From Myxococcales bacterium (GTDB taxonomy: Bacteria; Myxococcota; UBA727; JABDBI01): DNA of 32,055 nucleotides. A program made the translations under genes and the position numbers. The stretch lies in assembly GCA_947445025.1 (NCBI GenBank), contig CANFCB010000012.1, positions 1-32,055 on the forward strand, in the 5' to 3' direction. This document shows positions 12,101-27,554 of the stretch, in pieces. Each line of letters starts with the position of its first letter. Positions within the stretch are counted from its first letter, which is position 1. Below the pieces are notes generated by a model that had not been told where the DNA came from, searched no databases, and saw only the letters and a program-made list of their open reading frames with translations.

Positions 12101-12367
12101 TACCGGAGTCGGTAACTCGACAGCAAAGAATTGCGCGCGCTCTAAAATCCAATCATCGAAAACATTATCGTGGGCCAGTTGCAACAACTTCGAGGTCACT
12201 CGAGAACGCATTTCGGCGGCCGCTTTTTCCGTAAATGTAACCGCTAAAATTTGCGAAGGATGCAGACGATCTTTGCTCTCGTGAAATCCCAACAAGGCAG
12301 AAATATATTCTTGCACCAAGGCATAGGTTTTTCCGGCACCAGCACCTGCTACCACAACGGTATTCAT
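9053..12367 (-). CDS. addA: AddA-like helicase-nuclease subunit
   Basis: This 1104-residue UvrD/RecB-family protein begins with Walker A (AGAGAGKTYALVQ, residues 7-19) and has Walker B LVDEFQDTSPLQ near 364, motif III GDPKQSIYGFRGAD near 414, motif V TIHQAKGLEYRFVILAD near 749, motif VI LLYVALTRAKERVFF, and a C-terminal PD-(D/E)XK nuclease motif (GFADLVAY, LLIDFKSS near 1044, then QLSAYAAAL). With AddB it would resect double-strand DNA ends for RecA loading. The ATG overlaps the addB stop by 4 bases (ATGA), showing translational coupling. RecB is the alternative, but the fused nuclease and AddB partner favour AddA. Its 3' end overlaps the hydrolase gene by 48 bases. Confidence 0.88.
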   Translation of the reverse strand: MNTVVVAGAGAGKTYALVQEYISALLGFHESKDRLHPSQILAVTFTEKAAAEMRSRVTSKLLQLAHDNVFDDWILERAQFFAVELPTPVELRSISRSILSAPICTFHSFCSQIIREHAVCAEIDSEFSLLAPLDENAIALDIAEAVIIDALSEGVDNVDCLLTRFQLRKFGDGKGLCDNLVSLYQQLSEHGMSPLQVQSALTVSNKILAEDKEIDRLFYQIKMAIGQFRESKLTGNALLRIEQVESALQIFLKMLHEKDDLEIKLSAAYKAMRACVAGRFGNDELRKDLVRAIVSLGSYLCFVLTTRDAKTICFLLERFFERFDAYKTHFSVLGFGDLLKKARLLLRNNLSVRKEVQNRFRRILVDEFQDTSPLQEDLVALLCEDPAQATTLLPHERAMSKVFLKNDVLFVVGDPKQSIYGFRGADVQLFNHTLNTVSKGSAHQAATGKRTTLQLCRRSQGSVVELVNLVGRATLASPGDGITFSAEDCLAALKPALGIAGSIWKADILSLHHKESAIADVLAAKVQKLIVEENAALEDIVVLVRRVKYALPIVLALQRFGIAARIYGGVGFFARTEVVDILAALKLAVDEDDELATLTVLRSPFVAMSDADLVLVLDSMADWKGGVRFPQVLAALENAPVAEDVKIRMTAFAGIIRHLRAKLGEISVAQAIDRLLEEGQYGLAIAVEEDAADRLANVLKLRSMCIAFFGDGVRRIRQLWESLDNPPKESLAENLDAQANAVRLMTIHQAKGLEYRFVILADTLSADPNDTDDISFSPHAGLAVTNKGRPIAACAPITQEEKQYAPTPIDLVRQSKKKASESELARLLYVALTRAKERVFFMDVQVDGEKVTDRGVNLRRLLYQGRDLDPQRFDMIMPTEIIKPYFNKGGREILEEPPPKPHLFVEQPAFKKRLTASQISDARLEKADKGILEVPAKSRTAKMGSLAHQLIAAVGMQMTKATSSQEIFVLLQATARRLGLSPLDAEVSLIMDACQKTLAGFVRGLLVDNYFLQFEAAIYLEQDSSVLEGFADLVAYHSSKCLLIDFKSSAYTAKSEATRLQLSAYAAALQPRMSVPIFFTACVIGEMSSLLSSDTSPGFDIFDA

Positions 12368-15348
12368 GATACCCTCCCTTCTTCAGTAATCACTGCTTCT
12401 GTAGGTAAAGAAGTAATATTAGAAGGAACACGACAAACACGTTTGAGACGACATTCGTCGCATCTCTCGCTTACATCGGCAGGCACAGCCCCGGCTAAAA
12501 CAGGATGCAAAAGTTCGTGCAACGAGGCAGCTAAACCATCGGGCGCTGAGTCGTCTAAAATGCGCCTGCGCAGATCTTTTACGCGCTGACGACCAAGCAA
12601 TGGACTCACAGTTCCGTCGGCAATGGAAACTAAGTACCCCAGCAATTCTGTCGAAGTGCTGCTGGGGCGATGATGCTCTAACAACCTTAAGTAAAGCGGC
12701 AATTGAAAATGAGATTGAAACACTTGTTTTTCATCTAATTTGCGGCTAATATTGGCGGTATTGGAAATTTTATAATCTACCACGACACGCACATGTTCAC
12801 CTTCATCAACCCGATCTAAAATACCACCAAAATAAAGCGTTTCTAAACCCACTTTAATAGGAATGGCACCTAAAAAAGATGCAACTTCGCCTCGATTTAA
12901 ACCCACCGCTAATTCAAAGGCTTTCGGGTACACGCCATACACCGGCGGATTTTTGCTCAAGTTAGAAACCAGGCGCAACAATGCAGTATTTAACCAAGCA
13001 ACATAGGCATACAAAACCGCCTGATGCCCCGACGCTTCGCTCTCGAGATAACGCTTTGCGCGTTGACACAAAATCGCCGTCAATTGGGCGCGATCTTTCT
13101 GATTCACCTCACGGTGTTCAATGGCGCCATGATTTTTATAAAAAACCTCGAGTACTTCATGGGCCAAACGCCCCAAAACTCTGGCATCCATGTCATTGCC
13201 GGCAGCCTGACCGACGTCTACCTTGAGCATGCCCTCGACAAAGCCGCGAAAGCGACAACGCGCCAAAGCTTCGATGCGCGTATAACTTAAAGGCCGCTCG
13301 GAAGTTAAACCTAATTGGGAAGAAAAACGGCGACGAAAAATGTCTTCGTTCACTTTAAAAGCAAAGGCATTGGTCACATCTAACAGCGACGCGTTTTGTT
13401 CTTTCTGAAAAAATTGATCGCGTTGTTTACGCATCTCAGAATAAAGCTGTAAGGTTTGTACTTCATAAACGTTTAGCTGACTTGTCTCACCGGTTGCTGC
13501 CCAATATTTTGCTTGAGAAATACGGGATTCCAATCGATCAAAGTTCACGGATATTTTTGGTTCATCATTTTCAGAATTAGCCGGACCCAAAGCGCGCAGC
13601 GCGGCATCAAAATACTCGCTTTGCGCCTGATCACGTTTGCTTTGATCTTGCCGTGACGAAGTGAGTATCAAGCCTTGCCGTGCTGACTTTAAAGCACCTT
13701 GCCACCACTTGGTTTCCCTATTAGCATCGTCTTCATGCAAAGGAAAAATGGCACGGTCTAAAAGACGATTAATTTCTGCACGATCAGCATCTTGCAGCAG
13801 TGGATCCCGGTCGGCATTTTTGGGTAAACGACCATGCACCATATCCACGACGGCAACGTAATCAAATGGCCGACCATACAGATCAGGCAAAGCCAGCAAC
13901 TGAACAGCATTGGCATCTGGCGCCGCGGGTTTTGAAAAATTGCTTTGGCTTAAATTTTTTTGAAACCATTTAATGAAACTTAAAAGCGAAATTTCACCTG
14001 AAGAAGCATCGAGTACATATTCCATGTGCAGAAGTTTTTCTTTGATTTTCAAAAAACCTTCGGCACTAGAAACAATTTGACTATCCATCAGTTCAATAAG
14101 GACACGTGTATACTTTTTTAAAGAAGCTTGCTTAGGGATACTATCTTTTATGTTTAGCAACGCCGAAACCGCATCAATCACATTTTGAATACTTTCTTGT
14201 TCATTCAAAGTAGACGCGGTTTTTTTTAAACGCAGCAAACGGTGAGCATAAGCACCTTGCGGCCTTTTTTCATCTTCAACATCATTGCGAATGCCGGCTT
14301 TTTTAAAATAGTCCAACATGTCAGCGATAGAAAATTTATGATTTTCCCTTGCTTGATATACAGGACAAGACAAAATAGAAATCACATCGTCTTTAGGAAA
14401 CTGCTTGGCCGTGGCATACAATAAATCCAACAGCAGCTGTCCACTGGCTACCTCGACAAGTTGACGGCCTTTGTTATCTTGGACAAAAATGCCGTGCTGC
14501 GCCAAAGCATCTTTAAAAAACAAGGAGCGTTCATCTAAACTTCGCAAGGCAACAGCAACGCTTGCAATACCTTTAGGACTTTGACGGAGCTGAGCAATAA
14601 AACCTGCCAACCAGCGTGCTTCTTTCACGATGTCATTGGCCAAATGAATCTGCACGCAGCCAAGAAGATTCGAGTATACATTCTCTTCGCTAAAAATAGC
14701 CTCGACCAATTCAGCTTGATGAACCAGTAGACCCAGTTTTACCAATTGCGCAATCACGCTTTGCTCAACCAAAGTCAAGTCAAGATCTTCCAAGCTAACC
14801 GAAGAAAACTTTTGTAAAAAAGATGGCAATTGTTTTTTGTGCTGCAAGATCTCTAGCGCATCACGAAGTGCAGTTTCTTTATCGATTTTCCCCAAATCCT
14901 GCATGCGCAAGGCCATCTGATTTAAGCTGGAAAATATTTGCTTAATACCTGAGGAAAATCCCCCCACCCCCTTTTCCAAAGGGGGACTGGAACCGCTTAT
15001 TCCCCCTTTGGAAAAGGGGGTAGGGGGATTTTCCTCGCGGCTGTCGAAGCAAAGCTTTTCTAAAATTTCATGAGGCGACGACCCGCCCTGAACCACCTCA
15101 CGAAATAATTTAGCATAATGGGGCGCCAGCATAAAATTCTGACCACATTCTTTCGCTAAAATATCAGCAGCCACCAAAGACAGGGCCGCGTCATCACCCT
15201 GAACTTCGCTATTTTCTATAAAAGCAATCAGCCGAATCTGATCGAAAAAATCTGCGCATGTCACAACATGGCAATACGTTTTTTCTGCACGAACTTTATC
15301 TTGAAGATGCCCACGACTTCTAACAACGTAAAGACTGACAGAACTCAT
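12364..15348 (-). CDS. addB: AddB-like subunit with nuclease domain and Fe-S cysteines
   Basis: This 994-residue partner of AddA has the pattern of AddB C-terminal domains: a first cysteine in IEALARCRFRGFVEGM (Cys698), the PD-(D/E)XK core VVVDYKIS followed by FQLPLYLRLLEHH, and a final CDECRLKRVC (Cys963, 966, 972). The four cysteines fit the [4Fe-4S] cluster that staples the AddB nuclease. I see no Walker A at the N-terminus (MSSVSLYVVRSRGHLQDK), so the helicase half is probably a Chi-scanning or structural remnant, as known for several AddB proteins. Residues about 105-133 come from an interspersed palindromic repeat inserted in frame. The ATG overlaps the stop of the upstream CpoB-like gene by 4 bases. 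Confidence 0.83.
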   Translation of the reverse strand: MSSVSLYVVRSRGHLQDKVRAEKTYCHVVTCADFFDQIRLIAFIENSEVQGDDAALSLVAADILAKECGQNFMLAPHYAKLFREVVQGGSSPHEILEKLCFDSREENPPTPFSKGGISGSSPPLEKGVGGFSSGIKQIFSSLNQMALRMQDLGKIDKETALRDALEILQHKKQLPSFLQKFSSVSLEDLDLTLVEQSVIAQLVKLGLLVHQAELVEAIFSEENVYSNLLGCVQIHLANDIVKEARWLAGFIAQLRQSPKGIASVAVALRSLDERSLFFKDALAQHGIFVQDNKGRQLVEVASGQLLLDLLYATAKQFPKDDVISILSCPVYQARENHKFSIADMLDYFKKAGIRNDVEDEKRPQGAYAHRLLRLKKTASTLNEQESIQNVIDAVSALLNIKDSIPKQASLKKYTRVLIELMDSQIVSSAEGFLKIKEKLLHMEYVLDASSGEISLLSFIKWFQKNLSQSNFSKPAAPDANAVQLLALPDLYGRPFDYVAVVDMVHGRLPKNADRDPLLQDADRAEINRLLDRAIFPLHEDDANRETKWWQGALKSARQGLILTSSRQDQSKRDQAQSEYFDAALRALGPANSENDEPKISVNFDRLESRISQAKYWAATGETSQLNVYEVQTLQLYSEMRKQRDQFFQKEQNASLLDVTNAFAFKVNEDIFRRRFSSQLGLTSERPLSYTRIEALARCRFRGFVEGMLKVDVGQAAGNDMDARVLGRLAHEVLEVFYKNHGAIEHREVNQKDRAQLTAILCQRAKRYLESEASGHQAVLYAYVAWLNTALLRLVSNLSKNPPVYGVYPKAFELAVGLNRGEVASFLGAIPIKVGLETLYFGGILDRVDEGEHVRVVVDYKISNTANISRKLDEKQVFQSHFQLPLYLRLLEHHRPSSTSTELLGYLVSIADGTVSPLLGRQRVKDLRRRILDDSAPDGLAASLHELLHPVLAGAVPADVSERCDECRLKRVCRVPSNITSLPTEAVITEEGRVS
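14951..15036. repeat. Palindromic C-rich repeat inserted in frame inside addB
   Basis: Two 36-base arms (14951-14986 and 15001-15036) are inverted copies with one mismatch, separated by 14 bases. On the gene's strand the repeat reads as NPPTPFSKGG, a linker, then PPLEKGVGGF. The total of 86 bases lies in an open frame and does not break the gene. The C-run/G-run core resembles the copies at 374-410 and 23877-23910. The insert lies in the poorly conserved N-terminal part, where extra residues may be tolerated. Confidence 0.85.
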
Positions 15349-16193: not shown

Positions 16194-16994
16194 TTACTCG
16201 ACGCTTATCTCGCTGCGACGATTTTTAGCATAAGCCGCTTGGGTGTCTGCTGGATCCAATGGCTTCTCTAATCCATAAGACACGTCATGCATTCTTGCTT
16301 CATCGACGCCCAATTTCGACAAATAATTTGAAGTAGCTCTGGCACGACGCTCTCCCAGTGACATGTTGTATTCACTGGAACCTTGCTTGTCAGTGTGACC
16401 TGCAATAGTCACTTTCGCATTTGGATTTTCTCGAAGACAAATGCCCCACTGATCAAGTATTACCACACCATCCGAACGAAGGTCGTATTTATTAAAATCA
16501 AAGAAAATATTGTTCTCTTCTGGGCACTTGGAATTCACAGTCATGGCTTCGCTGCTGCTTTGCACACAAAGACCTGATTCGCATTTAAATCCGGTTTGGC
16601 AATCGGTATTTTGACTGCAGGTGAGAGGCGCAACACAACGTCCACTGCTACAAACTTGGCCATCGACACAGGCACTACTATCTTCGCAATTCGCGGCACA
16701 AAGACCAGCTTCGCAATGCGCTGCCTCGCCACATACGGCATCATCTGCACAAGTCATAATACACATATTGTCTTTACACTGCTGTCCTTCCTGGCAATCC
16801 GTGTCTTTAGCGCATTCTTGGCACTTACCGAAGAGGCAAACACCAGCTTTCGCATCAGCACCAGTACCGACTTTACACTGCGAATCGGTTTTACAATTAG
16901 GATATTCGAGACCTTTGCACCCGACTTGCCAAATGGCCAAGCTCAATCCGAGTACACACAATCCGAGACGATATTTTACAAACATTTTATTCAT
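16194..16994 (-). CDS. Pal-like OmpA-domain lipoprotein with Cys-rich repeats
   Basis: A signal peptide ends in the lipobox WQVGC (Cys26). Residues about 34-145 hold four regular repeats of the form C-x5-C-x5-C-x4-C (for example CADDAVCGEAAHCEAGLC and CSQNTDCQTGFKCESGLC), preceded by one longer variant. The C-terminal OmpA domain (about 155-267) has NIFFDFNKYDLR, TIAGHTDKQGSSEYNMSLGE and RRARATSNYL, the peptidoglycan-binding pattern of Pal. The protein likely tethers the outer membrane to peptidoglycan, with the Cys repeats as a disulfide-rich spacer. GGAGG lies 5 bases before the ATG at 16994, which is preferred over the ATG at 16997. It heads the run to the CpoB-like gene, addB and addA. 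Such repeats are familiar from myxobacterial surface proteins. Confidence 0.83.
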   Translation of the reverse strand: MNKMFVKYRLGLCVLGLSLAIWQVGCKGLEYPNCKTDSQCKVGTGADAKAGVCLFGKCQECAKDTDCQEGQQCKDNMCIMTCADDAVCGEAAHCEAGLCAANCEDSSACVDGQVCSSGRCVAPLTCSQNTDCQTGFKCESGLCVQSSSEAMTVNSKCPEENNIFFDFNKYDLRSDGVVILDQWGICLRENPNAKVTIAGHTDKQGSSEYNMSLGERRARATSNYLSKLGVDEARMHDVSYGLEKPLDPADTQAAYAKNRRSEISVE

Positions 16995-17066
16995 CATTTC
17001 CTCCCTGTATTGCTCTTGCTTTAAGTCTGTGAGAGCAGATTGGCAAGAGACTTTGTGGGTTGCAAT

Positions 17067-20884: not shown

Positions 20885-21080
20885 TTGTCGTGATTGTCTT
20901 AACAGCTCAGGCGTGCACTGCGGCCGTTGTCCGGCTTTCGTATAAAATCCTATGGATCAACTATAATCGTTCACGCCCATCGGAGTTGTCATGAAAGCCT
21001 GATGGCTTTAGCCCCGGTTCGGAATGACAGGAAAACCTTAGCCGAAACTCAGGTTAAAGATAGAGATCGGAGCAATCCAT
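20885..21080 (+). repeat. Intergenic spacer with interspersed repeat
   Basis: The segment at about 20980-21025 (GAAAGCCTGATGGCTTTAGC followed by CCCGGTTCGGAATGACAGG) resembles the block at about 205-245, so the repeat is dispersed. A perfect TATAAT at 20962-20967 is a possible -10 box for the next gene, but no good -35 stands at 16-18 bases. A ribosome site GGAG lies 8 bases before the ATG at 21081. No coding region is visible. Confidence 0.5.
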
Positions 21081-23336
21081 ATGCGAAAAATAACGTTTTT
21101 CAAAGTGTGCGGAAAAGATCACGCAAGCATTCAGCTAGACTCTGATGAAAATCTTACCGACGAAGAAACAGACGTCGAAAAAATTGCTCCGCCAAGCAAA
21201 CAAACTAATGCTGATTTCTATCGCAATGTTCTGTATTACAAACCATTGATTGTTGCTTTTTTGATTCTAGCAGTCGGTACGTTTTATTATTTTTATCCCG
21301 CTGAAAAATCTTTTTTTGCTTTTGTTCGCATATGGTGTCTTTTTCAGGCCTATGCTGTGCTCACCAATCTGAGTGAGCAGCTCCGCTTTTATGACTGGTG
21401 GAGCAAATCCACACTGAGCGACGCGAACACGAGAGGACTCGGTACGAATGGGTTTTGCCTATTTGGAGTTATCCCCATGCCAAATCTCTCGAGCGATTCG
21501 CTAAGAGCGGTTAGTGTCAGCTATATCGGCTGTTTGGTTTTGTGTGCTTTGTTTGCAGAACAACCGTTTATTGGATACCTATTTATAATCGCAACCGTCC
21601 TTGCTCTTTTCTACTTTTCTTCACTGTGGGCAGAGAGAAATGCGTCATATCATCGCGAATATGTGACCTTAGCTATTCTTTTCTATTTTTGTTTTACGCC
21701 CGACTTTTATGGATTCGGCCAGTCATCGCCTGCAATCAGTTTTTTAATTCAGCTTCACATTACTTCCATCTACGTGGCAGGGGCGGCGCAAAAAATCGCC
21801 TGTTCTTTTTGGGCAAAAAAAAACTGGTTCGCATGTGCCCCTCACGGATTCATGTGGCGCGCGATGTGGTCTAAGCCGTACTACAGCACAATACAGCGCT
21901 TCTTTTTCTTGAATCCAAAACTTATGGCTTTTGGCGGATTCTTGATTCTACTTCTTGAACTCGCGTTTTTTACGCTTTTTTGGGCAAGCCATGACACGCG
22001 AGTGACGGCGATAACCTGCATGCTTGTTTTTCACATTGCTGTATTCGTGCTGCAAGGGATTGACTACCTCACCTTTTGGAGTCCCGCTTTCCTGTTGTGG
22101 TTCATTGTGCAGGGAAGTTCAGATACGAGTATTTTGAACCTTTTACATTCGTGGTACATGGCTCCTGCAATCCTATTTTGTGCAACACAGCTACTGTACG
22201 CTTTGACTTTTGCAGAAGACCTAAACGTCAATGCTCCACCATTCACCTGTTGTCCCATGTTTGTGAATGTATGCAGATTTAATGAACGAATACCGCAGTA
22301 TTATTGCATGTGGGATTTGAGCTCTCCCATCGCATATGAGCGACTCGAGTGGATTTACCCCTTTGTTAAAGCCGAGTTTGGGATGGGCATGGTCGAATCT
22401 GATCTCGAAAAGCTTCCATTTAATTTCATTGGCTTTGGCTATTACGCTGAACCATGTCAGCTCCCTGCCTTGCAGAGAAAATGGTTTCACACTGATCTGA
22501 TAAAAGACGAAGGGTTTTTCCTCTATGCCAACTATGTAGTGGACCCGAAGTTGAGCAAACGATTAGCTCAACTCATGATTTGGCTACATGAAAATCAGCA
22601 TTCAACTTCGATTTACGACAAAATTTTTTTAAAGGATGCTATGGTGCGCTACACGGAGTGCTACAAAATGTTTGTCGACGATATTTTCGATGCCGATGCC
22701 GATGGGCCTTCAAAAGGTACTGACCTCTATTTGAAAACCTATACATGCGAAAAGGAAGAAGAGATAAGAGCCGTTTATGATGAATGGGCACCAAGTTATG
22801 ACGACCAAATGTTTAAATTGGGTTGGAATGCTCCGAACCAAATTGCTGAGCTGCTCGCAAGAGCATTTGCCAGTCATGAACGACCTTCGGCAAGAATTTT
22901 GGATGTCGGAGCAGGCACAGGACTCGTAGGACTTGCCCTCGCACATATCGGATTTAGATCACTTGATGCGTTTGATATTTCAAGCGAAATGCTTAAACAG
23001 GCTAAAGCCAGAGCAGTGTATGCAAATACCATCCTTGGAAATGCCGAAAATCTCACCGAGTATATAGACCAAAAATATGATGCAGTTGTTTGTGTAGGAG
23101 CACTCAACTTTGGCCACATTCTTCCAAACACTTTGATCGAATTGATTCATGCGACCAAGCAAAATGGCCATATTTGTTTTTCAACTCGAGAAGACTACTA
23201 TCAGATAAGCGCTCACGTCGTGCAAAAAGAACTGGAGCAGCAGCAACGCTGGCGACTGATTGCAAATGAAATTTATCCGACATCGATCAAAGATATGCCT
23301 CACCGACATTGGCTGTACCAAGTGATCGACTTCTAA
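21081..23336 (+). CDS. HTTM-like membrane domain fused to a SAM methyltransferase
   Basis: The 751-residue protein has three parts. Residues about 55-380 hold many hydrophobic helices in the order of bacterial HTTM (vitamin K carboxylase-like) domains: SFLIQLHITSIYVAGAAQKI near 224, GGFLILLLELAFFTLFWASH, then LVFHIAVFVLQGIDYLTFWS. Residues about 385-550 are soluble, with PFTCCPMFVNVC. The C-terminal part (about 560-751) is a class I methyltransferase with YDEWAPSYDDQMF, motif I LDVGAGTGLVGLALAHIG near 607, acidic motif II LDAFDIS and motif IV DAVVCVGALNFGHIL. The fusion suggests modification of a membrane-associated substrate; which one is unknown. No frameshift is seen. It lies between a dispersed repeat and the HTH module, as in an acquired island. 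Confidence 0.72.
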   Translation: MRKITFFKVCGKDHASIQLDSDENLTDEETDVEKIAPPSKQTNADFYRNVLYYKPLIVAFLILAVGTFYYFYPAEKSFFAFVRIWCLFQAYAVLTNLSEQLRFYDWWSKSTLSDANTRGLGTNGFCLFGVIPMPNLSSDSLRAVSVSYIGCLVLCALFAEQPFIGYLFIIATVLALFYFSSLWAERNASYHREYVTLAILFYFCFTPDFYGFGQSSPAISFLIQLHITSIYVAGAAQKIACSFWAKKNWFACAPHGFMWRAMWSKPYYSTIQRFFFLNPKLMAFGGFLILLLELAFFTLFWASHDTRVTAITCMLVFHIAVFVLQGIDYLTFWSPAFLLWFIVQGSSDTSILNLLHSWYMAPAILFCATQLLYALTFAEDLNVNAPPFTCCPMFVNVCRFNERIPQYYCMWDLSSPIAYERLEWIYPFVKAEFGMGMVESDLEKLPFNFIGFGYYAEPCQLPALQRKWFHTDLIKDEGFFLYANYVVDPKLSKRLAQLMIWLHENQHSTSIYDKIFLKDAMVRYTECYKMFVDDIFDADADGPSKGTDLYLKTYTCEKEEEIRAVYDEWAPSYDDQMFKLGWNAPNQIAELLARAFASHERPSARILDVGAGTGLVGLALAHIGFRSLDAFDISSEMLKQAKARAVYANTILGNAENLTEYIDQKYDAVVCVGALNFGHILPNTLIELIHATKQNGHICFSTREDYYQISAHVVQKELEQQQRWRLIANEIYPTSIKDMPHRHWLYQVIDF

Positions 23337-23600: not shown

Positions 23601-23963
23601 ATGACAAATAAAATATGCATCCCCATCGAGATATTTCACAATTCAAAATTATCGCTACGTGCCAAGTTTGTTTGGGTAGAGCTTTCGCTGTTGCCACGAG
23701 GTGTGAATGGCGAATTTGTTATTCATCAAAAAGAGTTAAGTTTGCAGCTGGGAATTTGTGTGAGTACGCTTAGGCGCGCTATAAAATCTCTTGAAGAGAA
23801 TAAGCTGATTCAATTTGTTGGGTTGTCAGACCAGCATTTTAAAAAGTTTGTTTTTAAGAGTGACGGTGTCGACGAGAAAATCCCCCTTTTTCTAAGGGGG
23901 ACTAAATCTAAAATTCACCGTCACGACTTGTGTGCATCGGGCAGTTTTCTAAGGGGGAATTAG
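23601..23963 (+). CDS. Helix-turn-helix protein with repeat-derived C-terminus
   Basis: The 120-residue product starts MTNKICIPIEIFHNSKLSLR and contains a winged-helix-like region: AKFVWVELSLLPRG, then IHQKELSLQLGICVSTLRRA and IKSLEENKLIQFVGL. The fold looks like the DNA-binding domains of plasmid or phage replication and regulatory proteins. From KIPLFLRGTKS onward the frame is made of the C-rich repeat and a partial second copy, so the original C-terminus was probably lost. GGAG 5 bases before the ATG at 23601 supports that start over a GTG 6 bases upstream. A second, about 92% identical copy lies at 1-175. It may be a truncated remnant. Confidence 0.62.
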   Translation: MTNKICIPIEIFHNSKLSLRAKFVWVELSLLPRGVNGEFVIHQKELSLQLGICVSTLRRAIKSLEENKLIQFVGLSDQHFKKFVFKSDGVDEKIPLFLRGTKSKIHRHDLCASGSFLRGN

Positions 23964-24008: not shown

Positions 24009-24377
24009 TTAGTTAATTGCCAAGGGATGATTCAAAAAAGCGTATTTATGCACAATCCGGCCACACATAAGATGCTCTTCGATAATCTGATCGAGGACAT
24101 CTGGTGTGCAAGAATGATACCAAGTCCCTTCTGGGTAAACCACCGCGATGGGGCCGGCTATACAGATACGAAAACAGCTGACCTTGGTTCGGCCGATATA
24201 AATCTCGTTGTTATTTTCCATTTCACCGATGCGGCGTTTTAAATGCATCCAAGATTCTAGGCCTTGCTCGAGGCTACAACATTTTGGCTTATGCTGATCG
24301 CAACACAAAAAAATATGACGCTTAACCTTCTCGAGGTGAAGTTTTTTAACAGTCGATTCTAAAGTTTCAGTCGGCAT
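24009..24377 (-). CDS. Thioredoxin-fold [2Fe-2S] ferredoxin
   Basis: The 122-residue protein matches the small thioredoxin-like ferredoxins: [14 protein letters not shown] (Cys25, 26, 33, 34), [11 protein letters not shown], then [20 protein letters not shown] with Cys68 and Cys72, and a closing [12 protein letters not shown]. The C-x3-C pair plus one cysteine from each N-terminal pair would bind the cluster. These proteins carry electrons in the cytoplasm, with varied partners. It lies 28 bases downstream of the topoisomerase VI A subunit on the same strand, possibly in one transcript. The partner enzyme is unknown. Confidence 0.87.
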
Positions 24378-24405: not shown

Positions 24406-25542
24406 TTAAGGCAAAAACTTGCTAGGATTTTTCAATTTTTGCGGCAAGTACTCTTCGATAACAAAGTTGAGTCCATGCAAACTCAAAGCTTGCTGTTCGG
24501 CGCGGACTTCCATTTTTAGTAACTTTTGCAAGGCATCTTGCCAAGGTTTATGCGCTTTGAAAAACGGGTCATTTTTCAGTGCATCATGCGCGCGTTTTCG
24601 ATCTTGTTCTCCGAGCGGATGGGTTGCTTTTTGCAAACCATAGTGCTCAATATCTTGCGGCGTCAATCCCAAATAAGTAGCACTAGGCACACAGAAAAAT
24701 TGATTAATATGCGCAGCGTTTCCCGATCCAACTTTTAGGGTACGATAAATATTCGCAATTCCATAAGGGTCACAATCTGTAAAAGCATAAACAGGAACTT
24801 TGGCTGACTCCGACAAGCGACGGACAAAGCGTCGACAGGCACGTGTCGGAACACCTCCCATGCTCACCAAAATACAGTTAGCTTGTTTCCAGTATTTATG
24901 GCTTTGTAAACGCTGAAACATACCTTGAGTTTCAATGCACAAAATAAACGAAGCCTTGGTCTGAAATTCTAAATGCTCAACCCACGACGGAACAGAATAT
25001 GCACCCGAGCCAAATTTAGTACAATCAATGACGATTTTTTCGCCGGTTTCTAAATCATGATCCACGACTTTTAATTCACCAGCAACAGCTCCTCCGTGTT
25101 GATCAGGAATGAAGCGTAGCTGCTCGCGGGTAATACCCTCAATGGCAAACATGGCCTCGATGTCATCCATGATTGCGTCAGATTCAGGTTGTTCCAAGAA
25201 ACGCGCATCACCCCAATTTTTCGATTGGTAGTACGCATCTCTTTTGGTAGCAAAATCATCGCTGGTTACTAAATCTTTGCTAAGCGACATCATTTTTAAC
25301 GTTTGCGCAAACGCTTTTACCGTGTTGACGCTTAACGTTCGCTTTTTGACGCCCGCGCCAAGTTCAAAAAAGCCTGCCTTCTTATCGTAACTGACATTGC
25401 TTAAACTTCGCAGCGGCATCTTAATGCTGGGTGCCTTTATCTTTTTGATTTCATTATGAATGATCATTGCGGTATTTTTAATCACCGCCAACGTCGCCTT
25501 ATCTTTTGTGGCGGATCCTGCTTTTGGTTTATCTACAGCCAT
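24406..25542 (-). CDS. top6A: DNA topoisomerase VI subunit A (Spo11 homologue)
   Basis: This 378-residue protein has the 5Y-CAP segment KRDAYYQSKNW with the catalytic tyrosine at 104 or 105, the region RFIPDQHGGAVAGELKV, and a Toprim domain with the Glu in ILCIETQGMFQRL and the Asp pair in YAFTDCDPYGIANIY. These are the cleavage-religation features of Top6A, the archaeal-type type IIB enzyme related to Spo11. It starts 2 bases after the Top6B stop (GGAG 5 bases before the ATG), so both subunits are made together. Topoisomerase VI is standard in archaea and plants but sporadic in bacteria. All active-site residues I can check are present, so the enzyme should be active. Confidence 0.93.
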   Translation of the reverse strand: MAVDKPKAGSATKDKATLAVIKNTAMIIHNEIKKIKAPSIKMPLRSLSNVSYDKKAGFFELGAGVKKRTLSVNTVKAFAQTLKMMSLSKDLVTSDDFATKRDAYYQSKNWGDARFLEQPESDAIMDDIEAMFAIEGITREQLRFIPDQHGGAVAGELKVVDHDLETGEKIVIDCTKFGSGAYSVPSWVEHLEFQTKASFILCIETQGMFQRLQSHKYWKQANCILVSMGGVPTRACRRFVRRLSESAKVPVYAFTDCDPYGIANIYRTLKVGSGNAAHINQFFCVPSATYLGLTPQDIEHYGLQKATHPLGEQDRKRAHDALKNDPFFKAHKPWQDALQKLLKMEVRAEQQALSLHGLNFVIEEYLPQKLKNPSKFLP

Positions 25543-25544
25543 AA

Positions 25545-27407
25545 TTACTCCGCCTCTTCTGCTTCAAATTGATGCCGCTTCACGCCTTTTTCGGGCAGAA
25601 TTTTTTCTCGGCTTTTTTCTAAAACTTGTTTTAATGCTTCCACAGTTGCGCCTTTTTCTGAAGCAGAAAACCCTAAAATTTCTTGCAGCGCTTCCCCGAT
25701 AGGATTTAAATATTTTTCAATATAGCTGCGCTTCTTTGCTTCGTCTGCTTGGCGCTGACGATGTTTTAAAAAACGTTGCAGTCTGCGTCCGCATTCCATC
25801 AGCGCCAGCCTGATCTCTTTCATGATTTCTGGATAATGCGCAATCGCCTCTTTAGACTCTGAGGTATAAGGCACCCACACTGAAGCAATATGCATCATTA
25901 CCACAACAGGCCCGCTTGGCAAAGCTCCTTTCGATTGATCCAAACCATAGGATTTCCATGGCGCCGTGATAGCAGCTTTACTCATAGCGCACGCCGACGC
26001 TTGATACTGCAAAGGCACGCGATTCGCGTAGCGATACACTTGCATCAAACCATCAGCTTTTAGGCCTTTTCCATAAAACAAGCCTACTTCAACTTGGAAG
26101 GGATTACCTCGATAAACAGCAGGTGGCCTAGTTACCGCGGTTACAAAGTATCCATCTTCTTTGGAGAGAACCGAGCCTTCTTCATCTCTTTTTAAACCTT
26201 GTACGGTCTTTAAGGAATCTTCTGCCTGTTTGTGGTTTTCTTCTACTTTGTCCTTGTCAAATTTGAACTCGGCTTGGTCAATTTCTTTTTTAGAATTTTT
26301 CTTTGGCCGCGTTTCTTTCTCTGGTTCGGAAATAAGGCTCGAAAATACTTTTTGTTCTTCTTGATCCCAGTGTTGCGATTCTACAAACAGCCAATACAGC
26401 GCTTTTAAAATACTGTCTTCGCCCATAGGAGACAAACAGTTGGTCGGCGGTGGCAAAAGTTTAACAGTCTGAATGGCGCCGTATAATTTTTCGGACTCCG
26501 AACGACTCAAGGTTGCCGCTTGTTGTTTTGGTTTTAATTGAGCTGTTTGACATAAGTCCTGCACCACTTGTTCGGTCACACGAGAGAATTCACCTCGTAA
26601 AAATGTGCTGACTGTTTCTTTCTTAGCGTCATGCAACATTTGGATCAGCGAACCGAGCTCAACACCATGGGGATGGGGTTTAATTTCTTGACCTGCCTCA
26701 GGTAATTGATTGACCAAACGCGGAAAACGATGGGCATTATTTTTGGGATCAAACAGCGTGATGTTCGCATGAGGATTCGACAACGCTGTCTGACTCATGT
26801 AAGCCAGCACGCCGTGACGCCCTTCTTTGTAGGATGCTTCCATGAAAATAGTTATGCATGTTCCTGAATCTCGTTCCTGCCATTTTGGATCATGAGATTC
26901 TGATTCGTTGACAATTTTTGCTTGATTCTTTTTGGTATCAATCTGCAATTTCATGGTAATCGCAGGCTTACCTTTGCCAGTTTTACTAATGACCTCGGCA
27001 GGTTTTCCCGTCGTCATCTGACCGTACATCACCGCTGCAGAGATACCAATACCTTGCTGCCCGCGACTTTGTTTCAGTCTATGGAATTTAGAACCGTAAA
27101 GCAATTTACCAAAGATATTGGGCAAATGGCTTTTGACGATACCAGGACCATTGTCCTCAATGGATACTTTATATTCGTTTTCAGATACTTGAGAAATTCG
27201 GACAACCACGTCGGGCAAGATCCCTGCTTCTTCGCACGCGTCCAAAGCATTATCGACACCCTCGCGCACAGTCGTCAAAAGCGCTTTTAAGGGATTATCG
27301 AATCCGAGCAAATGGCGATTTTTAGCAAAGAATTCGGAAATGGAAATTTCGCGAATCTTACTCGCCATCGTCGTCGCGGTCTCCTTTGGAGGCTCCTTTT
27401 TTCTCAC
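25545..27407 (-). CDS. top6B: DNA topoisomerase VI subunit B
   Basis: This 620-residue GHKL ATPase has the N-box REGVDNALDACEEAG (Asn53), the G1 box IEDNGPGI (83-90) and the lid RGQQGIGISAAVMYG (115-129). A helix-two-turn-helix region and a transducer domain with PVVVMMHIASVWVPYTSESK and EIRLALMECGRRLQRFL follow. A charged Lys/Glu-rich insert (ETRPKKNSKKEIDQAEFKFD) lies in the C-terminal half and looks like a linker. ATP binding closes the B dimer and drives strand passage through A. Start: AGGA lies 7 bases before the GTG at 27407; a TTG at 27413 and an ATG at 27368 are alternatives. It is the first gene of the top6B-top6A-ferredoxin run. Confidence 0.93.
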   Translation of the reverse strand: MRKKEPPKETATTMASKIREISISEFFAKNRHLLGFDNPLKALLTTVREGVDNALDACEEAGILPDVVVRISQVSENEYKVSIEDNGPGIVKSHLPNIFGKLLYGSKFHRLKQSRGQQGIGISAAVMYGQMTTGKPAEVISKTGKGKPAITMKLQIDTKKNQAKIVNESESHDPKWQERDSGTCITIFMEASYKEGRHGVLAYMSQTALSNPHANITLFDPKNNAHRFPRLVNQLPEAGQEIKPHPHGVELGSLIQMLHDAKKETVSTFLRGEFSRVTEQVVQDLCQTAQLKPKQQAATLSRSESEKLYGAIQTVKLLPPPTNCLSPMGEDSILKALYWLFVESQHWDQEEQKVFSSLISEPEKETRPKKNSKKEIDQAEFKFDKDKVEENHKQAEDSLKTVQGLKRDEEGSVLSKEDGYFVTAVTRPPAVYRGNPFQVEVGLFYGKGLKADGLMQVYRYANRVPLQYQASACAMSKAAITAPWKSYGLDQSKGALPSGPVVVMMHIASVWVPYTSESKEAIAHYPEIMKEIRLALMECGRRLQRFLKHRQRQADEAKKRSYIEKYLNPIGEALQEILGFSASEKGATVEALKQVLEKSREKILPEKGVKRHQFEAEEAE

Positions 27408-27554
27408 AGGCAAATCCTTTTTTTAAAAAAAACTTTCTAATACGATCTTGGGCGCTATCCGCACTAACGCGTTGTGGTATAGCCAACTTGTATATCTAAG
27501 CACTAATTCTTTAATGGATAGGTCTTAACTTTACTAGCAGATCTGGAGATATTT

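What the first reader, a model, noticed from the sequence alone, without database searches (positions are those of the whole stretch)
21081..23336. Fusion of an HTTM-like membrane domain with a class I SAM methyltransferase
Seen in sequence: one uninterrupted 751-residue frame joins a polytopic N-terminal region with the HTTM/vitamin K carboxylase-like pattern (IQLHITSIYVAGAAQKI; FHIAVFVLQGIDYLTFW) to a C-terminal methyltransferase with LDVGAGTGLVGLAL. Known: HTTM domains usually stand alone or with carboxylase-like C-termini. Inference: membrane-bound modification of a lipid, quinone or exported peptide, with the methyltransferase on the cytoplasmic side. I do not know of a described system with this pairing.
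Basis: partly seen in the sequence, partly recalled or inferred. Interest (0 to 1): 0.72.

Follow-up and report, generated by a model that had tools for sequence, protein, structure and literature searches.

The report
Membrane HTTM-like protein fused to methyltransferase
One gene in a reduced-genome myxobacterium joins a very divergent membrane domain of the vitamin-K-carboxylase (HTTM) superfamily, apparently inserted upside-down in the membrane, to a METTL27-like methyltransferase; no other copy of this pairing was found, and what it methylates is unknown.

Summary
Window 21081-23336 is one coding frame of 751 aa whose coding signal runs unbroken through the junction. The C-terminus (about 545-751) is a METTL27/WBSCR27-like class I methyltransferase with an intact SAM motif. 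The N-terminus (about 77-378) is HTTM-like, but so divergent that Pfam HTTM is silent; profile comparison places it (hhalign 92%, P 6e-7; shuffles and unrelated polytopic proteins fail). GGCX's catalytic-base lysine (K218) is kept as K238; the Glu-site histidine (H160) aligns to Arg192, so carboxylation is unlikely. New here: an extra N-terminal helix plus a reversed positive-charge pattern (z about -6 against 50 HTTM relatives) suggests that the membrane core is inverted, with both ends and the methyltransferase in the cytoplasm. The fusion was found nowhere else: not in the family, 195 Myxococcota, 717 sampled Alpha/Gammaproteobacteria, 400 genomes of a Chloroflexi bin's phylum, plasmids or phages. 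Over 100 methyltransferase relatives showed no membrane domain. Best reading: a membrane-anchored, cytoplasm-facing methyltransferase for a hydrophobic substrate such as a quinone or lipid. The substrate is inferred, not shown.

The parts
21081..23336 (+). fusion gene, 751 aa
   Evidence: single ORF; codon bias supports the frame through the junction
21069..21072 (+). GGAG, likely ribosome binding site, 8 nt before the ATG
   Evidence: read directly in the sequence
21240..21302 (+). extra N-terminal transmembrane helix (residues 54-74), absent from HTTM relatives
   Evidence: hydropathy peak about 1.9; low-confidence AF2 helix 43-71; aligned homolog segments are soluble or amphipathic
21309..22214 (+). 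HTTM-like core, nine helices (residues 77-378)
   Evidence: hhalign to HTTM-likes 92%, 6e-7, controls; HMM hit 1.5e-6; A2 profile to GGCX 1.1e-21
21651..21656 (+). His191-Arg192; Arg192 sits in the column of the classical HTTM / GGCX Glu-site His (H160)
   Evidence: 51-sequence alignment: H in 32/50
21792..21794 (+). Lys238, equivalent of GGCX catalytic base K218
   Evidence: K in 50/50 relatives; GGCX alignment; role of K218 from PMC12589487
22032..22034 (+). His318, conserved HTTM histidine
   Evidence: H in 49/50 relatives
22215..22712 (+). post-TM9 'PFTCCPMF' motif and orphan linker (residues 379-544)
   Evidence: motif aligned with L024 'WPVACYPTF'; equivalence to GGCX 'DMM' is inference; rest without relatives
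22713..23333 (+). METTL27-like class I methyltransferase (residues 545-751)
   Evidence: AF2 pLDDT mostly 86-98, a few blocks 73-82
22899..22931 (+). SAM-binding motif LDVGAGTGLVG (residues 607-617)
   Evidence: D608, G610, G612, T613, G614 invariant in 24 sequences

Best explanation
A single polytopic enzyme: a divergent HTTM-superfamily membrane core (ten helices in all) carrying a METTL27-like SAM methyltransferase on its C-terminus. Shown computationally: the frame, the two homologies, an intact SAM site, a kept HTTM base lysine, an extra N-terminal helix and a reversed charge pattern. Inferred: the extra helix flips the HTTM core, so that N-terminus, cap loop, active-site face and methyltransferase all lie in the cytoplasm, where SAM is. 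The HTTM core binds a hydrophobic, membrane-resident molecule (most likely an isoprenoid quinone or a lipid) at its cytoplasmic face and presents it to the methyltransferase. It is probably not a carboxylase, because the Glu-site histidine is replaced.
For: HTTM kinship. Retained HTTM invariants R83, G165, Y231, K238, D/E293, H318. Two positions invariant in the relatives are lost (Arg 50/50 at 169, Ser 50/50 at 213), and both lie in loops or helix ends that are cytosolic in the GGCX topology. K/R in GGCX-cytosolic loops minus GGCX-luminal loops: query -12, 50 relatives mean +4.5, sd 2.5, minimum -2. By density: -0.086 vs +0.113, sd 0.032, minimum +0.035. In 8-residue TM flanks: -3 vs +10.9, sd 4.3, minimum +1. 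GGCX has 9 TMs and luminal domains after them (PMC12589487), so one extra N-terminal helix explains the flip. Methyltransferase: METTL27 3.6e-23; fold 7qcb 1.8e-14, then a PE N-methyltransferase and UbiG. Quinone context: COX1, 508 bits, and a polyprenyl synthase; no UbiE-type methylase found in the held assembly, the methyltransferase profile finding only this gene, PrmA and one weak hit.
Against: Only one sequence exists, so no covariation and a poor model of the membrane half (pLDDT about 30-60). Charge asymmetry within the query alone is only borderline (Fisher p 0.07). The 50 relatives are all Myxococcota and many are closely related. The UbiE absence rests on motif and profile searches of a 73%-complete assembly. 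METTL27 itself has no known substrate despite extensive tests (PMC9240639). Nothing shows that the HTTM core binds a quinone; by hand count the GGCX quinone-pocket residues F294/F299 fall on Q/L in the query.
Confidence: 0.45

Rival explanations
1. The HTTM core is only a membrane anchor or scaffold, catalytically dead; the methyltransferase works on a soluble or peripheral substrate near the membrane (lipid headgroup, protein or RNA), like a tethered METTL27.
For: Glu-site His and several quinone-pocket positions are not kept; the methyltransferase is complete and its relatives all work without a membrane part.
Against: K238, E293, H318, Y231 and R83 are all kept, which a pure anchor would not need.
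Confidence: 0.3
2. RiPP or peptide maturation: the HTTM and methyltransferase parts modify an exported peptide, as HTTM proteins and alpha-N-methyltransferases occur together in linaridin clusters.
For: Linaridin clusters carry an HTTM protein and usually a methyltransferase (PMC9927463); weak similarity of the methyltransferase to the cypemycin enzyme (7wzg, E 0.34) and fold hits to N-terminal protein methyltransferases.
Against: No convincing precursor, LinL-like gene or exporter beside the gene; neighbours are an RluA-like synthase, a small HTH protein and Topo VI. Such methyltransferase hits are generic for class I enzymes.
Confidence: 0.1
3. GGCX-like topology is kept: the C-terminal domain is periplasmic and the methyltransferase part is non-functional there or uses another ligand.
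For: Homology argues for conservation of orientation; GGCX domains after TM9 are luminal (PMC12589487).
Against: SAM motif fully intact; loop charges reversed by three measures; extra helix present.
Confidence: 0.1
4. Assembly chimera or recent accidental fusion without function.
For: Single genome; no second copy.
Against: Coding bias is continuous in the same frame through linker and junction; GC and GC3 match neighbouring genes; divergent but intact invariants on both sides.
Confidence: 0.05

Closest known systems
HTTM / vitamin K-dependent gamma-carboxylase superfamily (Pfam PF05090; GGCX, PDB 9bum, 9l1y)
   Same: nine-helix core, Lys base, conserved R, Y, E/D and H, post-TM9 'xMF/DMM' segment
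   Different: below Pfam detection, Glu-site His replaced by Arg, extra N-terminal helix, reversed loop charges, methyltransferase in place of the luminal propeptide-binding domain
Bacterial HTTM-like + DCC or 'WxMF' C-terminal proteins of Myxococcota (L024, L067, L073)
   Same: closest detectable relatives of the membrane half (L024 BLASTP 2e-5)
   Different: none of those inspected carries a methyltransferase; ordinary charge pattern
METTL27 / WBSCR27 (PDB 7qcb)
   Same: best sequence and structure match of residues 545-751
   Different: METTL27 and the close bacterial relatives found are about 210-300 aa without a membrane domain; substrate unknown
Linaridin biosynthesis (HTTM protein plus LinM/CypM-type methyltransferase)
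   Same: an HTTM protein and a class I methyltransferase work in one pathway
   Different: separate proteins there; no linaridin precursor or LinL seen here

Membership tests
HTTM (PF05090) | score above the curated Pfam cut-off (27.7 bits) | tested here: not met
   no HTTM match at E up to 10; none in the own-genome search
HTTM superfamily (distant) | significant profile similarity to HTTM-likes over the membrane core | tested here: met
   hhalign 92%, P 6e-7, score 59.9 vs at most 29 in 200 shuffles; A1 HMM E 1.5e-6
HTTM superfamily (distant) | invariant Lys and His of the core | tested here: met
   K238 50/50, H318 49/50
Vitamin K-dependent gamma-carboxylase | catalytic base K218 | tested here: met
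   K238 by alignment
Vitamin K-dependent gamma-carboxylase | Glu-site H160 | tested here: not met
   Arg192 in that column, His one residue before; alignment locally uncertain
Vitamin K-dependent gamma-carboxylase | luminal/periplasmic substrate-binding domain and active site | tested here: inconclusive
   charge pattern points to the opposite side; no experiment
METTL27-like class I methyltransferase | Rossmann fold and SAM motif, best match to METTL27 | tested here: met
METTL27-like class I methyltransferase | methyl transfer activity on a defined substrate | not testable with these tools
   no substrate known for the family (PMC9240639)
Linaridin biosynthesis | precursor peptide and LinL beside HTTM and methyltransferase | tested here: inconclusive
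   none recognised among neighbouring ORFs; no LinL model search was run

The most novel reading that the evidence does not exclude
An HTTM-fold domain whose membrane orientation has been inverted by one added helix, so that its Lys-centred active face works in the cytoplasm in tandem with a fused SAM methyltransferase: a new two-part membrane enzyme, possibly the quinone methylase of this lineage.
Probability: 0.3. Interest if true: 0.75.

Novelty: new variant of a known kind. Interest (0 to 1): 0.5.

Why it matters
HTTM proteins are widespread in bacteria, but hardly any has a known function (own knowledge), and METTL27 is a methyltransferase with no known substrate (PMC9240639). A natural fusion of the two narrows both problems to a membrane-resident, probably hydrophobic substrate. 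An inverted HTTM core would also be a clean case of membrane topology inversion in evolution.

Tried and rejected
Pfam, NCBIfam and phmmer on the N-terminal half (nothing useful; the weak chalcone isomerase and Fab hits are chance). N-terminal relatives in plasmids, phages, Myxococcota, Alpha- and Gammaproteobacteria: only chance-level hits, except L024, which proved to be an HTTM protein. First genome-contig scan with the single protein: none. L002 (609-aa frame) looked like a second fusion but is a methyltransferase domain plus a second, soluble domain without TM helices. L169/L170 in sister species looked like HTTM relatives but read as lipase-maturation-factor-like proteins next to a DCC protein. 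Literature search for an HTTM-methyltransferase fusion: none.

Full report
Observation. The frame at 21081-23336 is real: 751 aa from an ATG with GGAG 8 nt upstream, no stop, and codon log-odds trained on neighbouring genes favour this frame through the linker and the junction. GC and GC3 are like the neighbours. The window is on contig C12 of a 1.085-Mb, 43-contig, 73%-complete assembly. The organism is Myxococcota: a 1500-base piece of Citreicoccus inhibens (L151) is 100% identical to G023, which is listed as 'same phylum'. Its family contains genomes of only 0.3-1.8 Mb, i.e. reduced-genome bacteria.

C-terminal half. Residues 545-751 match Methyltransf_25/11, METTL27/WBSCR27 in the PDB at 3.6e-23 and, by fold, 7qcb at 1.8e-14, followed by a phosphatidylethanolamine N-methyltransferase and UbiG. 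The AF2 model of this half is mostly confident (pLDDT 86-98 in most blocks, 73-82 in a few). Seven residues are invariant across the 24 aligned sequences: Y573, D608, G610, G612, T613, G614, D632. The close relatives are soluble proteins of about 210-300 aa in rhizobia, marine Alphaproteobacteria, Dehalococcoidia and others; of more than 100 inspected, none has three or more membrane helices before the methyltransferase. A sample of 400 genomes from the phylum of a Chloroflexi bin gave matches to the methyltransferase part only.

N-terminal half. Pfam HTTM is silent. Among 195 Myxococcota, the only meaningful weak hit was L024, which is itself an HTTM protein, aligned from TM6 to the 'CxPxF' segment at 2e-5. 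An alignment of 11 diverse HTTM-likes (A1) gives hhalign 92%, P 6e-7, with the query. The same comparison with the window's MATE transporter gives 0.2%; with 200 segment-preserving shuffles at most 4%; with other polytopic proteins at most 1.7%, except two LMF-like proteins that are plausibly real distant relatives. A1 finds GGCX in the PDB at 6.7e-18, and A2, with the query included, at 1.1e-21. An A1 HMM ranks this ORF first in its whole genome, E 1.5e-6. Membership in the superfamily is therefore supported; membership in Pfam HTTM as curated is not.

Residues. In a 51-sequence alignment the query keeps R83, G165, Y231, K238, E293 and H318. K238 aligns to GGCX K218, the base that deprotonates vitamin K hydroquinone (PMC12589487). 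The column where classical HTTMs have His (GGCX H160, the Glu-site residue) holds Arg192, with His191 beside it. I therefore do not file it as a carboxylase.

Topology. GGCX has nine TM helices followed by luminal domains (PMC12589487). The query has the nine matching helices plus one extra hydrophobic helix at 54-74 (the low-confidence AF2 model also shows about ten long helices there). If the core kept the GGCX orientation, the methyltransferase would be periplasmic, away from SAM. The loop charges say otherwise. The loops that are cytosolic in GGCX hold 1 K/R in the query but 7-15 in the relatives printed; those that are luminal hold 13. The difference is -12 against a mean of +4.5 (sd 2.5, minimum -2) in 50 relatives, and density and 8-residue-flank versions agree. 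An Arg of the TM2-TM3 loop and a Ser at the TM4-TM5 loop, invariant in the relatives and cytosolic in the GGCX orientation, are lost. The simplest account is that the added helix inverted the core. This is inference from one sequence and needs an experiment.

Spread. No second fusion was found in the family (8 genomes), 195 Myxococcota, 350 Gammaproteobacteria and 367 Alphaproteobacteria sampled, 400 genomes of the phylum of L079, plasmids, phages or viral contigs. So it is so far a singleton; metagenomes were out of reach.

Function. Neighbours do not form an obvious pathway: an RluA-like pseudouridine synthase upstream, a small HTH protein, a small cysteine-containing ORF and Topo VI downstream. 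The genome keeps COX1 and a polyprenyl synthase, so a quinone pool is likely (inference). The methyltransferase profile finds in the held assembly only this gene, PrmA and a weak third hit, no UbiE-type enzyme. That is a lead for a quinone-methylase role, weakened by 73% completeness. METTL27 has no known substrate (PMC9240639). I commit to a membrane-anchored, cytoplasm-facing methyltransferase for a hydrophobic membrane substrate at 0.45, with a pure-anchor version as the main rival.

Noticed in passing
24406-27413 (-): Adjacent Topo VI B and A subunits (Pfam 2e-49, 4e-57), a type IIB topoisomerase, in a reduced Myxococcota genome.
   Followed up: no
383-401, 14967-14985, 15002-15020, 23882-23900: Palindromic repeat CCCCCTTTnnnnAAGGGGG, far above chance (8 strand matches vs 0.04 expected). 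Two copies lie in frame inside the AddB-like gene (12364-15348) and encode '...PPTPFSKGGISGSSPPLEKGVGGF...', i.e. a repeat tolerated inside a protein.
   Followed up: partly
L169 and L170 (sister-species genomes G003, G005): A 470-aa polytopic protein reading like a lipase maturation factor (VGTYGAFGSITRPRYE..IEGS), divergently beside a DCC thiol-oxidoreductase-like gene; it scores 84-86% in hhalign against HTTM-likes.
   Followed up: partly
24009-24377 (-): 122-aa ORF that reads like a thioredoxin-fold [2Fe-2S] ferredoxin; no Pfam hit at 1e-5.
   Followed up: partly
L002:385-2187 (-): METTL27-like methyltransferase domain fused to a second domain that resembles an EgtD-type histidine methyltransferase (by eye).
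   Followed up: no
16194-16997 (-): OmpA-domain protein with a Cys-rich EB/DUF7107-like stretch.
   Followed up: no
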